This document shows positions 11,606-50,631 of a DNA stretch of 64,000 nt, one piece after another. Position numbers and translations under genes: made by a program. The notes under the pieces were generated by a model. It did not search any database, was not told where the DNA came from, and saw only the letters and a list, made by a program, of their open reading frames with translations. Location: the NCBI RefSeq assembly GCF_900095705.1, contig NZ_LT608327.1, positions 682,001 to 746,000 of the forward strand, in the 5' to 3' direction. The number at the start of each line of letters is the position of its first letter. Position 1 is the first letter of the stretch. The stretch comes from Fusobacterium massiliense (GTDB taxonomy: Bacteria > Fusobacteriota > Fusobacteriia > Fusobacteriales > Fusobacteriaceae).

Positions 11606-11681
11606 AGTCTCTGACGTCCGTATTAGTTCGAAGAGCCTATATTTATTGAGCTCGTAGAACTCATACAGCTGTCAAGAGACT
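11606..11681. repeat. Palindromic intergenic repeat, copy 4
   Basis: Full-length forward copy (AGTCTCTGACGTCCG to GTCAAGAGACT), with the tail TAGGGAAAATATAAAATTAA on its left at about 11575-11594. It lies between a promoter and the start of the gene it serves, so it would be transcribed into that mRNA's leader. Confidence 0.9.
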
Positions 11682-31129: not shown

Positions 31130-31205
31130 AGTCTCTGACGTCCGTATTAGTTTGAAGAGCCTGTGTTCATTGAGCTCGTAGAACTCATACGGCTGTCAAG
31201 AGACT
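31130..31205. repeat. Palindromic intergenic repeat, copy 6
   Basis: Full-length forward copy upstream of hsdM. Here the tail lies on the right-hand side, ending TATACTTTCCTA at about 31224-31236, showing that either arm can carry the tail. Confidence 0.92.
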
Positions 31206-36184: not shown

Positions 36185-36871
36185 TTAGAATAATTCAGGT
36201 GCTTTTAAAACTTTTAAATCTTTATCTATTTCAAAAACTAATGGTTTTCCAGTAGTTAAATTTAAGTTTAGTATTTCATCATCAGATATATTTAATAAAT
36301 ATTTTATTAATGCTCTCAAACTATTTCCATGAGCAGCAACTATAACATTCTTTCCAGCTTCTAAACTTTTAGAAATATCTGAATGCCAATAAGGTAATAC
36401 TCTTGCTATAGTGTCTTTTAAACTTTCTCCCATAGGAATTTCTGCATCAGGTACATCTGCATATCTTCTATCTGACTTTGGATAATATTCACTGTTTTCA
36501 TCTATTGCTGGTGGATTAATATCAAAACTTCTTCTCCAAATATGAACTTGTTCATCTCCATATTTTTTTGCAGTTTCAGCTTTATTCAATCCTTGTAAAG
36601 CACCGTAGTGTCTTTCATTTAGTCTCCAAGATTTATTTACAGGAATATATAATTCATCCATTTCTTCTAAAACATAGTTTAAAGTTTTTATAGCTCTTTT
36701 TAAGTATGAAGTATAAGCTACATCAAAAACTAATCCCATTTCTTTTAAAGCTCTTCCAGCTGCTTTAGCTTCTTCTGTTCCTTTAGGGCTTAAATCTACA
36801 TCTTTCCACCCTGTAAATCTATTTTCTAAATTCCATTGACTTTCTCCATGACGAATTAAAACTAATTTCAT
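36185..36871 (-). CDS. gpmA: 2,3-bisphosphoglycerate-dependent phosphoglycerate mutase
   Basis: This 228-residue glycolytic enzyme interconverts 3- and 2-phosphoglycerate. It shows the RHG motif [35 protein letters not shown] and [14 protein letters not shown] with the second catalytic histidine. Length is normal. AGGAGG precedes ATG 36871. It is the first gene of the minus-strand series that continues to yigZ. Confidence 0.95.
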
Positions 36872-37045
36872 TATTGCCTCCTAAAATTTATTTTTTATTA
36901 ATTTAAAATATTTTACTATATATACTATAACATTTCAAATATTTTTTAATCATTATTTATTTATGATTTTTTATTTCTCTATTTTGATAAATAATTTTTC
37001 TTTTTTTGCACTGTAGCTAAAATCTTATCTATAGAATAAATAGAA

Positions 37046-37093
37046 TCTCCTGACAGCGCTTTTAGTATTTAATTTTATACTTTCCTAAAATAA
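37046..37093. repeat. Internally deleted remnant of the palindromic repeat
   Basis: TCTCCTGACAGC (one end of the core) is joined almost directly to the tail TATTTAATTTTATACTTTCC. The rest of the core is missing. It stands next to the fuller copy 7 in the 537-bp divergent gap between gpmA and the acyl-CoA dehydrogenase gene. Confidence 0.7.
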
Positions 37094-37097
37094 ATAA

Positions 37098-37170
37098 AGT
37101 TGACGTCCGTATTAGTTCGAAGAGCCTGTATTCATTGAGCTCGTAGAACTCATACGGCTGTCAAGAGACT
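37098..37170. repeat. Palindromic intergenic repeat, copy 7
   Basis: Forward copy lacking the first few bases of its left arm. A tail copy follows on the right (about 37176-37200) and another, from the deleted remnant, precedes it. Left of this pair, 36872-37045 is AT-rich and I see nothing in it. To the right lies the promoter at 37272. Confidence 0.9.
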
Positions 37171-37271
37171 AATTTTAATATTTAAAATTATACTTTCTTA
37201 TATAATAAAAAATCAATTTATAATGTTGCACTTAATATAAATATATACAAAATAATATCTAATTTATTTAG

Positions 37272-37300
37272 TTGACTTTATATATTTAAAGTATTATAAT
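37272..37300 (+). promoter_or_regulatory. Promoter of the acyl-CoA dehydrogenase fusion operon
   Basis: TTGACT (37272-37277) and TATAAT (37295-37300) have a 17-bp spacer, a near-consensus sigma-70 promoter. It leaves a leader of about 100 bases containing an AATAAGT/ACTTATT hairpin (about 37307-37338). Confidence 0.75.
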
Positions 37301-37408
37301 AAACTCAATAAGTAAAGTTTTTTTGAAACTTATTTTTAATTCAATTTTACTGTTTGCTTTTAACACAATTATTTGTAATTTTTTAACTATATTTAAGGAG
37401 GTTTTTAT

Positions 37409-39319
37409 ATGTTATTTAAGACGACTGAAGAACATGAAACACTTCGTATGCAAGTTAGAGAATTTGTTGAAACAGAAATTAAACCTATTGCAGCAATACT
37501 TGACAAAGAAAACAAATTCCCACACGAAGCGATTAAGAAATTTGGAAAAATGGGATTTATGGGCTTACCTTATCCAAAGGAATACGGTGGAGCAGGAAAA
37601 GATATTTTAAGTTATGCTATAGCTGTTGAAGAACTATCTAGAGTTGACGGTGGAACAGGAGTTATTCTATCTGCTCATGTATCATTAGGTTCATATCCTA
37701 TATATGCTTTTGGTACAGAAGAACAAAAGAAAAAATATCTTACACCATTAGCTAAAGGGGAAAAATTAGGAGCATTCGGTTTAACAGAACCTAATGCTGG
37801 TTCAGATGCTGGTGGAACTGAAACAACTGCTGTCAAAGAAGGAGATTACTATATATTAAATGGTGAAAAAATCTTTATAACAAATGCTGATGTTGCAGAA
37901 ACTTATGTAGTTTTTGCTGTTACTACTCCTGATATTGGAACAAAAGGTATAAGTGCCTTTATTGTTGAAAAAGGTTGGGAAGGATTTACATTTGGAGATC
38001 ACTATGATAAATTAGGTATCCGTTCATCTTCAACTTGTCAATTATTATTTAATAATGTTAAAGTTCCTAAAGAAAATCTTTTAGGAAAAGAAGGAGAAGG
38101 ATTTAAAATAGCTATGTCTACTCTTGATGGAGGACGTATAGGTATAGCTGCACAAGCACTAGGAATTGCACAAGGAGCTTTTGAACATGCTCTTGAATAT
38201 GCAAAAGAAAGAGAACAATTTGGAAAACCAATAGCTTTCCAACAAGCTGTTTCATTTAAACTTGCTGATATGGCAACTAAACTAAGAACAGCTAGATTTT
38301 TAATATATAGTGCTGCTGAATTAAAAGAACACCACGAACCTTATGGAATGGAATCTGCTATGGCTAAACAATATGCTTCTGATATAGCTCTTGAAGTAGT
38401 TAATGATGCATTACAAATATTTGGAGGTTCTGGATACTTAAAAGGAATGGAAGTAGAAAGAGCATACAGAGATGCAAAAATCACTACTATTTATGAAGGA
38501 ACAAACGAAATTCAAAGAGTTGTTATAGCAGCTCATTTAATAGGAAAAGCTCCTAAATCAGATGCAGTAGCAGTTGCTAAAAAGAAAAAAGGCCCAGTTA
38601 CAGGACCTAGAAAGAATATAATTTTTAAAGATGGATCTGCTAAAGATAAAGTTGTTGCACTAGTTGCTGCACTAAAAGCAGATGGCTATGATTTTACTGT
38701 TGGTATTCCTCTTGACACTCCAATTGGAAAATCTGAAAGAGTTGTAAGTGCCGGTAAAGGAATTGGAGATAAGAAAAATATGAAGCTAATTGAAAAATTA
38801 GCTCAACAAGCAGGTGCTTCAGTTGGCTGCTCTAGACCAGTAGCAGAAACATTACAATATTTGCCACTTGATCGTTATGTAGGAATGTCTGGACAAAAAT
38901 TTATGGGAAATCTTTATATAGCTTGTGGAATTTCAGGGGCTTTACAACATCTAAAAGGAATTAAAGATGCAACAACAATCGTTGCTATAAACACAAATGC
39001 AAATGCACCAATATTCAAAAATGCCGACTATGGAATAGTTGGAGATGTAACAGAAATTTTACCTTTACTTACAAAAGAATTAGATAATGGAGAAGCTAAA
39101 AAAGATGCACCTCCTATGAAAAAAATGAAAAGAAATATACCTAAGGTTACATATAACCCTCATGTGTATGTATGTAGTGGTTGTGGTCATGAATATAATC
39201 CTGAAATAGGAGATGAAAATTCTGATATCAAACCAGGAACTAGATTTAAAGATTTACCTGAAGATTGGACTTGTCCTGACTGTGGAGATCCAAAATCTGG
39301 ATATATAGATGCTAAATAG
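37409..39319 (+). CDS. Acyl-CoA dehydrogenase - EtfA FAD domain - rubredoxin fusion
   Basis: This 636-residue protein has three parts. Residues 1 to about 385 are a short-chain acyl-CoA dehydrogenase: [23 protein letters not shown]-like [18 protein letters not shown], and the catalytic Glu region [12 protein letters not shown]. Residues about 430-560 match the FAD-binding C-terminal domain of Etf[49 protein letters not shown]. Residues 582-636 are a rubredoxin with four cysteines (589, 592, 622, 625; VCSGCG and TCPDCG). The full ETF nucleotide domain of EtfA/EtfB is absent. It starts at ATG 37409 after AGGAGG and is followed 26 bp on by a flavodiiron protein gene, whose usual electron donor is rubredoxin. 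This suggests electrons pass from acyl-CoA to the flavodiiron protein. Confidence 0.93.
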
Positions 39320-39345
39320 ATAAATATAATTGAGGAGGATATCTT

Positions 39346-40563
39346 ATGTATAATGTTAGAAAAATAACTAAAGATCTTTATTGGATTGGAGCAAACGATC
39401 GTCGTCTTGCACTTTTTGAAAATATACACCCTATCCCAGAAGGAGTGTCATATAATTCATATATGCTACTAGATGAAAAAACAGTAGTTTTCGATACTGT
39501 TGATTGGTCTGTAACAAGACAATATATTGAAAATATAGAATATTTATTAAACGGTAGAGAATTAGACTACTTAGTAGTACATCATATGGAACCTGATCAT
39601 TGTGGTTCAATTGAAGAGTTAACTCTTCGTTATCCAAATTTAAAAATAATCTCTTCTGAAAAAGGATTTATGTTCATGAGACAATTTGGATATAAAAGCA
39701 TAAATAGTCATCAATTAATTGAAGTAAAGGAAGGAGATAAATTCAATTTTGGTAAACATGAAATTGTGTTCCTAGAAGCTCCTATGGTTCACTGGCCAGA
39801 AGTTTTAGTAAGTTTTGATACAACTAATGGTGCTTTATTCTCAGCTGATGCCTTTGGTTCATTTAAGTCTCTTGATGGAAGATTATTTAATGATGAAGTA
39901 AATTGGGATAAAGATTGGTTAGACGAAGGACGTCGTTATCTAACAAATATTGTTGGAAAATATGGACCTCATATACAACTTTTATTAAAAAAAGCAGCTC
40001 CCATTGTAGATAAAATTAAATTTATATGTCCTTTACACGGGGTAGTTTGGAGAAACGATTTTGGATATTTAATTGATAAATATGATAAATGGAGTAGATA
40101 TGAACCTGAAGAAAAAGGGATTGTAGTTGCTTATGCATCAATGTATGGAAATACAGAAAATGCTGTAGAAATTCTAGTATCTAAATTGGCAGAAAAAGGA
40201 ATTACAAATATAAAAATGTTTGATGTATCTAACACTCATGTTTCTTATTTAATTTCAAATGTTTTTAAATATAGCCATTTAGTTATAGCTTCTCCTACAT
40301 ATAATTTAGGAATTTATCCAGTTATCCATAATTTTGTAATGGATATGAAAGCATTAAATTTACAAAATAGAACAGTTGCAATAGTTGAAAATGGTTCTTG
40401 GGCAAGAAAATCTGGAGATTTGTTACAAGAATTCTTTGAAACTGAAATAAAAGAAATGACTGTTTTAAATGAAAAAGTTGGATTAACTTCTGCAGCTAAC
40501 AATGTTAACCTTGAAGAAATAGATACACTTGTTGATGCTTTGGTTGAATCTTTGAATAAATAA
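39346..40563 (+). CDS. Flavodiiron protein (O2/NO reductase, FprA type)
   Basis: This 405-residue protein has an N-terminal metallo-beta-lactamase-like diiron domain: HHMEPDHCGS (79-88), APMVHWPEV, SADAFGSF and CPLHGVVWR, so the diiron ligands look intact. A C-terminal flavodoxin domain follows (VVAYASMYGNTENAVEILV). Such enzymes reduce O2 to water or NO to N2O and take electrons from rubredoxin. It has no rubredoxin domain of its own, but the gene before it ends in one. AGGAGG precedes ATG 39346. It ends in a strong terminator. Confidence 0.94.
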   Translation: MYNVRKITKDLYWIGANDRRLALFENIHPIPEGVSYNSYMLLDEKTVVFDTVDWSVTRQYIENIEYLLNGRELDYLVVHHMEPDHCGSIEELTLRYPNLKIISSEKGFMFMRQFGYKSINSHQLIEVKEGDKFNFGKHEIVFLEAPMVHWPEVLVSFDTTNGALFSADAFGSFKSLDGRLFNDEVNWDKDWLDEGRRYLTNIVGKYGPHIQLLLKKAAPIVDKIKFICPLHGVVWRNDFGYLIDKYDKWSRYEPEEKGIVVAYASMYGNTENAVEILVSKLAEKGITNIKMFDVSNTHVSYLISNVFKYSHLVIASPTYNLGIYPVIHNFVMDMKALNLQNRTVAIVENGSWARKSGDLLQEFFETEIKEMTVLNEKVGLTSAANNVNLEEIDTLVDALVESLNK

Positions 40564-40572
40564 TTATAATTT

Positions 40573-40617
40573 AAAATGCACTCTTATTCTTAAAAAAGAA
40601 TAAAAGTGCATTTTTTT
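40573..40617 (+). terminator. Terminator of the acyl-CoA dehydrogenase/flavodiiron operon
   Basis: AAAATGCACTCTTATTCTT pairs with AAGAATAAAAGTGCATTTT, followed by TTTTATTTT. Confidence 0.93.
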
Positions 40618-40654
40618 ATTTTATAGGAAAGCATAAAATCAAATAACAAAAATT

Positions 40655-40730
40655 AGTCTCCAACGTCCGTATTAGTTCGAAGAGCCTGTGTTCATTGAGC
40701 TCGTAGAACTCATACGGCTGTCAAGAGACT
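40655..40730. repeat. Palindromic intergenic repeat, copy 8
   Basis: Forward copy (AGTCTCCAACGTCCG to GTCAAGAGACT) with the tail TAGGAAAGCATAAAATC on its left. It lies between convergent genes. Confidence 0.92.
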
Positions 40731-40746
40731 TTTCTTATTTAATATA

Positions 40747-41487
40747 TTATCTGCTCCATCTATCTAATGGGGATAAATATTGAGGATATGCTAAATACAT
40801 AGCTTTAGAATTTATATTGTTTAGTTCTAACTTTGTCTTATTTTCTTTTTTAGATAAATTATCTAGTTGCATAACTCTATCAGAAACTTCTACTTGATAC
40901 CATGTATCTGCATTAAAAAAGTTTGGTCTTTTCATAAAAGATGATAAAAGATTTCTTAATTTTTTAACATCTTTTTCTTTTAAATCATCTTTTTTAGAAA
41001 AATTCACAATTTTTTCCCATTCTTCTTTATCAGCAACAACTTCTTTTATATATTTTGAGGGATTATCTAAACGTGAATTTGAAGACATTACCATATATCT
41101 TACTAATCCTATCGGATCTTTGATATTTGTTTCTTCTAAGAAAAATTTTCTAGGCATTCTTTTTACATATCCATTCATTATTTCTACAAAATGATCAAAG
41201 TCTTCATCTGACATTTGTTCAGCAGGTATTTTTGATAATGCATCTAAGAAATAATACTCTTTTTCAGTCATTCTTCCATGTCTTCTTAAATTTAATATAG
41301 GATTTTCTTCTCCATACCAATCTGGTAATTTAGCTTCAGAAACCATAACTTGAGATATAGTTACATCCCAATTGTGAGCAGCTTCTTTAGTTATAGAGTA
41401 TTTTTGTACTAAATTTTCTTTAGTTTTTGTTGAACTACAAGATGCAAAAGTAAAAACTATTGCTAAAATAAATAATATTTTTTTCAT
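40747..41487 (-). CDS. Lipoprotein of unknown function
   Basis: This 246-residue protein begins MKKILFILAIVFTFASCSST, a lipoprotein signal with cysteine 17. The remainder is helical and charged and I do not recognise a family. ATG 41487 has GGGGGG upstream; a longer in-frame start at 41562 would overlap secA and lacks the signal. It lies 10 bp after secA and is probably co-transcribed with it. Confidence 0.82.
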   Translation of the reverse strand: MKKILFILAIVFTFASCSSTKTKENLVQKYSITKEAAHNWDVTISQVMVSEAKLPDWYGEENPILNLRRHGRMTEKEYYFLDALSKIPAEQMSDEDFDHFVEIMNGYVKRMPRKFFLEETNIKDPIGLVRYMVMSSNSRLDNPSKYIKEVVADKEEWEKIVNFSKKDDLKEKDVKKLRNLLSSFMKRPNFFNADTWYQVEVSDRVMQLDNLSKKENKTKLELNNINSKAMYLAYPQYLSPLDRWSR

Positions 41488-46319: not shown

Positions 46320-46395
46320 AGTCTCTGACGTCCGTATTAGTTCGAAGAGCCTGTGTTCATTGAGCTCGTAGAACTCATACGGCTGTCAGGAGACT
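46320..46395. repeat. Palindromic intergenic repeat, copy 9
   Basis: Full-length forward copy with the tail AGGAAAGTATAAAAATAAAC on the left (46290-46309), between the terminator and the end of crr. Confidence 0.93.
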
Positions 46396-50555: not shown

Positions 50556-50631
50556 AGTCTCTTGACAGCCGTATGAGTTCTACGAGCTCAATGAACGTAG
50601 GCTCTTCGAACTAATACGGACATCAGAGACT
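50556..50631. repeat. Palindromic intergenic repeat, copy 11 (inverted)
   Basis: Full-length inverted copy with the tail TAGGAAAGTATAAAATTAAA on its left (50527-50546). An extra half-arm, TGTCAAGAGACTTTA, repeats at 50639-50653. It separates the outer-membrane gene from the convergent csoR-like gene. Confidence 0.93.

What the first reader, a model, noticed from the sequence alone, without database searches (positions are those of the whole stretch)
37409..40563. Acyl-CoA dehydrogenase-EtfA-rubredoxin fusion paired with a flavodiiron protein: a possible acyl-CoA-driven O2/NO reduction module
Seen: a single 636-residue protein joins a short-chain acyl-CoA dehydrogenase, an EtfA-type FAD domain and a C-terminal rubredoxin (CxxC twice). 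It is followed 26 bp later by a flavodiiron protein without its own rubredoxin, under one promoter and one terminator. Known: flavodiiron proteins take electrons from rubredoxin, and acyl-CoA dehydrogenases pass electrons to ETF. Inferred: the fusion is an internal electron wire from acyl-CoA (for example butyryl-CoA) through FAD to rubredoxin and on to O2 or NO. That would protect an anaerobe without using NADH. No EtfB is encoded here, so this would not be the bifurcating Bcd-EtfAB system.
Basis: partly seen in the sequence, partly recalled or inferred. Interest (0 to 1): 0.78.

Follow-up and report, generated by a model that had tools for sequence, protein, structure and literature searches.

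The report
Known butyryl-CoA-driven oxygen reductase operon
This two-gene unit matches an enzyme already described in Fusobacterium nucleatum, in which a fused dehydrogenase passes electrons from butyryl-CoA to a partner protein that turns oxygen into water, so it is a correct reading of a system that is already in print.

Summary
Window 37409-39319 encodes a 636-aa fusion of a short-chain acyl-CoA dehydrogenase, the FAD-binding C-terminal domain of EtfA and a rubredoxin; 26 bp later 39346-40563 encodes a class A flavodiiron protein (FDP). The same fusion and gene pair in Fusobacterium nucleatum (FN1424-FN1423) was named butyryl-CoA oxygen oxidoreductase (BOOR) by Bystrom and Wolthers in 2024. 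That paper is not held; [quoted passage not shown] My survey agrees: 22 of 22 full-length fusions among 98 Fusobacteriota genomes and 79 of 80 loci from named records have the FDP downstream; the one miss is a contig end. The 20 functional residues checked are identical in 91 of 91 pairs. The fusion carries the only PF00301 rubredoxin found in this genome. Possibly newer side observations: a roughly 70-bp repeat present about 207 times here and in 0 of 20 relatives, and related FDPs without a fusion beside them.

The parts
37272..37300 (+). sigma-70-like promoter candidate (TTGACT-17-TATAAT) ahead of the fusion gene
   Evidence: consensus scan, 11 of 12 matches; not evidence of function by itself
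37409..39319 (+). BCR fusion gene, 636 aa: acyl-CoA dehydrogenase (residues 6-378) + EtfA C-terminal FAD domain (about 439-560) + rubredoxin (587-630, Cys 589/592/622/625)
   Evidence: ORF, Pfam, NCBIfam, PDB sequence match to 5ol2_C over 8-378, alignment of 22
39346..40563 (+). class A flavodiiron protein gene, 405 aa (diiron beta-lactamase domain + flavodoxin-like domain, no rubredoxin)
   Evidence: ORF, Pfam, PDB sequence matches to flavorubredoxin and rubredoxin:oxygen oxidoreductase, alignment of 21
40573..40614 (+). probable operon terminator: 19-nt inverted repeat followed by T-rich DNA
   Evidence: inverted repeat I8 and sequence; not flagged by the terminator scan

Best explanation
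[quoted passage not shown] The fusion (BCR) oxidises butyryl-CoA to crotonyl-CoA on the FAD of its dehydrogenase domain, passes electrons to the FAD of the EtfA-type domain, then to the rubredoxin iron, and from there to the FMN and diiron site of the flavodiiron protein encoded next to it, which reduces O2 to water. Because butyryl-CoA is a weak reductant, the cell spends no NADH, and the crotonyl-CoA formed can again serve as acceptor for the bifurcating Bcd-EtfAB complex, which with Rnf conserves energy. Shown here: domain order, conserved functional residues, pairing, presence of Bcd-EtfAB-like genes and RnfC in the same genome. Reported for the F. nucleatum pair: the alpha4beta4 complex and the coupled reaction. 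Inferred: the order of hops inside the fusion, and that this strain's proteins behave like those of F. nucleatum.
For: Same three-domain order and adjacent FDP as FN1424-FN1423, with biochemistry summarised in PMC12288474 section 8 and cited in PMC12630350; passages of PMC13404960 describe the same pair in gut Clostridia. Architecture. Full-length fusion in 22 of 98 Fusobacteriota genomes; the FDP lies next to it on the same strand, 19-133 nt from match end to match start, in 22 of 22. Of 80 loci from named records, 79 have the FDP downstream on the same strand; the remaining contig ends 89 bp after the fusion. Glu363, four rubredoxin Cys, eight EtfA-domain residues and seven FDP metal-motif residues are identical in 91 of 91 full-length pairs (functional labels recalled). 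Pairwise distances of fusion and FDP correlate at r = 0.84, reached by 0 of 1000 label permutations (shared species history also contributes). The fusion holds the only PF00301 match in the genome. Bcd-, EtfB- and EtfA-like genes lie together on C6 and RnfC on C5.
Against: The primary paper is not held, and no F. nucleatum FN1424/FN1423 sequence could be aligned letter by letter. Substrate choice (butyryl-CoA rather than another acyl-CoA) is inferred: the best NCBIfam match is acryloyl-CoA reductase AcrC (484 bits), below its cut-off of 640. Related FDPs without a fusion beside them exist in other Fusobacteriota, so this type of FDP can have another donor.
Confidence: 0.95

Rival explanations
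1. The module works mainly as an acyl-CoA:NO reductase (nitrosative defence) rather than as an O2 reductase.
For: The FDP's best solved-structure sequence matches are labelled anaerobic nitric oxide reductase flavorubredoxin and nitric oxide reductase; FDPs as a class reduce O2, NO or both (PMC12288474).
Against: The review states that the F. nucleatum BCR-FDP complex did not show NO reductase activity. A rubredoxin:oxygen oxidoreductase is also among the matches.
Confidence: 0.03
2. Electrons run the other way: an external donor reduces the rubredoxin domain and the fusion serves as a crotonyl-CoA (or other enoyl-CoA) reductase.
For: The dehydrogenase domain's best NCBIfam model is acryloyl-CoA reductase AcrC, though below its cut-off; acyl-CoA dehydrogenases are reversible (recalled).
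Against: Near-constant pairing with an FDP points to O2 as the acceptor; the genome has separate Bcd-EtfB-EtfA-like genes for enoyl-CoA reduction; the published direction is butyryl-CoA to O2. I did not search for a rubredoxin reductase.
Confidence: 0.03

Closest known systems
Butyryl-CoA oxygen oxidoreductase (BOOR; BCR FN1424 + FDP FN1423) of Fusobacterium nucleatum, Bystrom and Wolthers 2024 (known through PMC12288474, PMC12630350 and PMC13404960)
   Same: Same Bcd-EtfA(C-terminal)-rubredoxin fusion and same neighbouring class A FDP in a two-gene unit.
   Different: None found at the level of architecture; no direct sequence comparison and no biochemistry on this strain's proteins.
Bifurcating butyryl-CoA dehydrogenase-EtfAB complex (PDB 5ol2, C. 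difficile by recall)
   Same: The dehydrogenase domain aligns with 5ol2_C over residues 8-378; the fused FAD domain is of the EtfA kind.
   Different: No EtfB and no EtfA N-terminal ETF domain at the locus, hence no site for a bifurcating flavin; a rubredoxin is fused instead.
Class A flavodiiron proteins fed by separate rubredoxins (1e5d, 1ycf, 1vme; organisms D. gigas, Moorella and T. maritima by recall)
   Same: The FDP matches these by sequence and has the same two domains.
   Different: Here the rubredoxin is built into an acyl-CoA dehydrogenase, so the electron source would be acyl-CoA rather than NAD(P)H.

Membership tests
Butyryl-CoA oxygen oxidoreductase (BOOR) | Fusion of acyl-CoA dehydrogenase, C-terminal EtfA FAD domain and C-terminal rubredoxin in one chain | tested here: met
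   Pfam domain order; 4 of 4 rubredoxin Cys invariant in 22 and 91 sequences
Butyryl-CoA oxygen oxidoreductase (BOOR) | Class A FDP encoded directly beside the fusion | tested here: met
   26-bp gap; FDP beside 22 of 22 Fusobacteriota fusions and in 79 of 80 named loci
Butyryl-CoA oxygen oxidoreductase (BOOR) | Diiron and Fe(Cys)4 ligand residues present | tested here: met
   FDP H80, E82, D84, H85, H149, D168, H231 and fusion C589, C592, C622, C625 identical in 91 of 91; assignment to the ligand motifs is recalled
Butyryl-CoA oxygen oxidoreductase (BOOR) | Butyryl-CoA-dependent O2 reduction to water, no NO reductase activity, alpha4beta4 assembly | not testable with these tools
   Reported for F. 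nucleatum in PMC12288474 section 8
Butyryl-CoA oxygen oxidoreductase (BOOR) | Sequence orthology to FN1424 and FN1423 themselves | not tested
   No record titled F. nucleatum among the 80 named loci (which says that near records may be left out); the nearest named one is F. gastrosuis, 86% for the fusion
Bifurcating Bcd-EtfAB | EtfB and full EtfA encoded with the dehydrogenase | tested here: not met
   No PF01012 domain in the fusion and no EtfB seen beside it; Bcd-, EtfB- and EtfA-like genes lie together elsewhere on C6
Flavorubredoxin NO reductase (NorV type) | Rubredoxin fused to the FDP and score above the equivalog cut-off | tested here: not met
   No rubredoxin in the FDP; NF008887 213.7 bits against 635 and NF003954 194 against 711

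The most novel reading that the evidence does not exclude
Since the fusion carries the only PF00301 rubredoxin detected in this genome, it may act as a general rubredoxin hub that also feeds the second, unlinked FDP (39% identical, C4:98591; it lies about 350 bp downstream of crotonase-like and 3-hydroxybutyryl-CoA dehydrogenase-like genes), so that butyryl-CoA could drive NO reduction or another stress reaction through a partner other than its operon mate.
Probability: 0.08. Interest if true: 0.4.

Novelty: already known. Interest (0 to 1): 0.15.

Why it matters
The mechanism is of real interest, because an obligate anaerobe uses a fermentation intermediate instead of NADH to remove oxygen, but it has been described and named.

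Tried and rejected
A mobile-cassette reading: the operon is flanked by two copies of a roughly 70-bp repeat (37103-37177 and 40663-40737), which looked like ends of a mobile unit. Rejected, because the repeat is dispersed genome-wide (109 forward and 98 reverse matches to a 34-nt core with up to 3 mismatches) and six matches to a 56-nt stretch of it lie in the window.

An RNA element in the leader: no Rfam match at E up to 0.1 in 36800-41000.

A linked regulator like the Rrf2 factor described in PMC13404960: a tblastn with three Rrf2-like queries found a relative in 21 of 101 loci examined. None of the 21 is among the 22 Fusobacteriota loci from the genome search (only 1500 bp of flank there), nor L042 or L060 (second copies of two of those 22). 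One of the 21, L091, is a record titled Fusobacterium naviforme (placed in Fusobacteriota by the NCBI taxonomy; I did not test its placement), so the regulator is not absent from every record that bears the genus name. Two of the three queries were scanned and are Rrf2 by Pfam; the third was not scanned. Some misses have little or no upstream DNA, and the queries were few, so 21 is a lower bound.

A search for a published description of the repeat (terms Fusobacterium, dispersed repeat, repetitive extragenic palindromic; two of three required) listed 9 papers; going by the listing, none is about such a repeat in Fusobacterium. I opened none of them.

No structure prediction was run, because published biochemistry had settled the main question.

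Full report
Observation. Pfam gives the first the order Acyl-CoA_dh_N, _M, _1, then ETF_alpha (439-519), then Rubredoxin (587-630), each above its cut-off; the second is an ODP-type beta-lactamase domain followed by flavodoxin matches just below cut-off, without a rubredoxin. By sequence the dehydrogenase part is closest to 5ol2_C, and the FDP to flavorubredoxins, 1ycf and 1e5d (that 5ol2 is the C. difficile Bcd-EtfAB complex, 1ycf Moorella FprA and 1e5d the D. gigas enzyme is recalled). Only the C-terminal, FAD-binding part of EtfA is present: the N-terminal ETF domain found in the genome's own EtfA is missing from the fusion.

What it is. A literature search led to a 2025 review (PMC12288474; abstract, passages and the whole of section 8 seen). 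It describes this pair in F. nucleatum: FN1423, a flavodiiron protein, bicistronic with a fusion of butyryl-CoA dehydrogenase, the C-terminus of EtfA and a rubredoxin. The fusion is named BCR and the complex butyryl-CoA oxygen oxidoreductase (BOOR). [quoted passage not shown] the source is Bystrom and Wolthers 2024, Biochemistry 63:2352, which is not held (nothing of it seen beyond its citation). PMC12630350 (abstract, opening and passages) and PMC13404960 (passages) cite and use the same system; the latter reports the pair in gut Clostridia near an Rrf2 regulator.

Independent tests. (1) Pairing within the phylum: among 98 Fusobacteriota genomes, 22 have a full-length fusion, all of them in the family of the window's genome (22 of its 61 genomes; 0 of the other 37). 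In 22 of 22 the FDP follows on the same strand, 19-133 nt from match end to match start; in one of them (G049) the FDP match stops after residue 248, at a broken frame about 50 bp before the contig end. (2) Pairing beyond the phylum: a scan of named records with the EtfA-rubredoxin part found 527 stretches encoding a relative, of which only the best 80 were fetched and examined; by their titles most are Clostridia and other Firmicutes. In 79 of 80 the FDP lies downstream on the same strand (in L038 and L049 cut by the contig end); the 80th contig ends 89 bp after the fusion. The distance is at most 288 nt in 77 of the 79 and 880 nt in L073 and L088; for L053 and L081 I took it from the ORFs, because the blast matches were broken. 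74 of 80 show the fusion as one full-length match; of the other six, four are cut by contig ends, one holds masked bases, and one (L081) has an interrupted frame. Three of the 80 (L035, L042, L060) are the same DNA as three of the 22, so 99 distinct loci were examined in all. (3) Residues: in 91 full-length pairs (the window plus 90 of 100 loci; the other 10 lacked a full-length match for one of the genes; two of the 90 are second copies of the same genome) Glu363, the four rubredoxin Cys, eight EtfA-domain residues and seven FDP metal-motif residues are identical in all (the functional labels are recalled). (4) Co-variation: distances of the two proteins correlate at r = 0.84, not reached by any of 1000 permutations (best 0.13), though common species history accounts for part of this.

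Genome context. The fusion carries the only PF00301 match in the 1.81-Mb genome, so no separate rubredoxin of that family was found to compete as donor; rubredoxin-like domains covered by other models were not searched. Bcd-, EtfB- and EtfA-like genes lie together on C6 and RnfC on C5, the partners with which the review links BOOR to energy conservation. The second FDP, on C4, is 39% identical; the review likewise lists a second, monocistronic FDP for F. nucleatum. The nearest named relative of the window's fusion among the fetched loci is that of F. gastrosuis (86%; one search warns that nearer records may be left out).

Against. No F. nucleatum BCR or FDP sequence was available for direct alignment; substrate specificity is inferred; related FDPs without a fusion beside them occur in some Fusobacteriota, for example G030, G033 (which also has the full pair elsewhere), G067, G081 and G087, so the FDP type does not by itself prove an acyl-CoA donor. 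The promoter is a single consensus match in a region with no excess of such matches, and the terminator was not flagged by the scan.

Verdict. A correct observation and an essentially correct mechanism, already published for a Fusobacterium. Interest is low as a discovery.

Noticed in passing
window 11626-11681, 31150-31205, 37103-37177, 40663-40737, 46340-46395 and 50556-50611 (-): A dispersed repeat of about 70 bp that folds into a long imperfect hairpin (83-nt stretch, -23.7 kcal/mol, z -2.85). A 34-nt core occurs 109 times forward and 98 times reverse in this genome with up to 3 mismatches and in 0 of 20 relatives searched, two of the same genus among them. The only Y1_Tnp (PF01797) match in the genome is a short piece in a 47-aa frame, so the agent that spread it is unknown.
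   Followed up: partly
L115 3975-5174 (G030), L116 3435-4634 (G033), L117 3186-4385 (G067), L118 3377-4600 (G087), L119 3212-4423 (G081): FDPs 51-59% identical to the BOOR FDP with no fusion beside them. By my reading of the ORFs (Pfam was run only on the FDPs of L115 and L117), those in L115 and L116 sit beside thioredoxin-like and CcdA-like genes and those in L117-L119 beside a PTS enzyme I-like gene. Their electron donors are unknown.
   Followed up: partly
L120 2234-5403 (G026:C1, about 3203733-3206890): A second, decaying copy of the fusion-FDP pair, with interrupted frames in both genes; an intact copy lies elsewhere in the same genome.
   Followed up: no
L124 1074-4315 (G000:C4): The genome's second FDP lies about 350 bp downstream of a crotonase-like and a 3-hydroxybutyryl-CoA dehydrogenase-like gene (named by reading the ORFs), on the same strand, with a copy of the dispersed repeat between.
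   Followed up: no
L073 and L088, between fusion and FDP: In two loci (titled Oscillospiraceae bacterium and uncultured Oscillibacter) the fusion and the FDP are 880 nt apart instead of the 18-288 nt of the other 77 paired loci; what lies between was not worked out.
   Followed up: no
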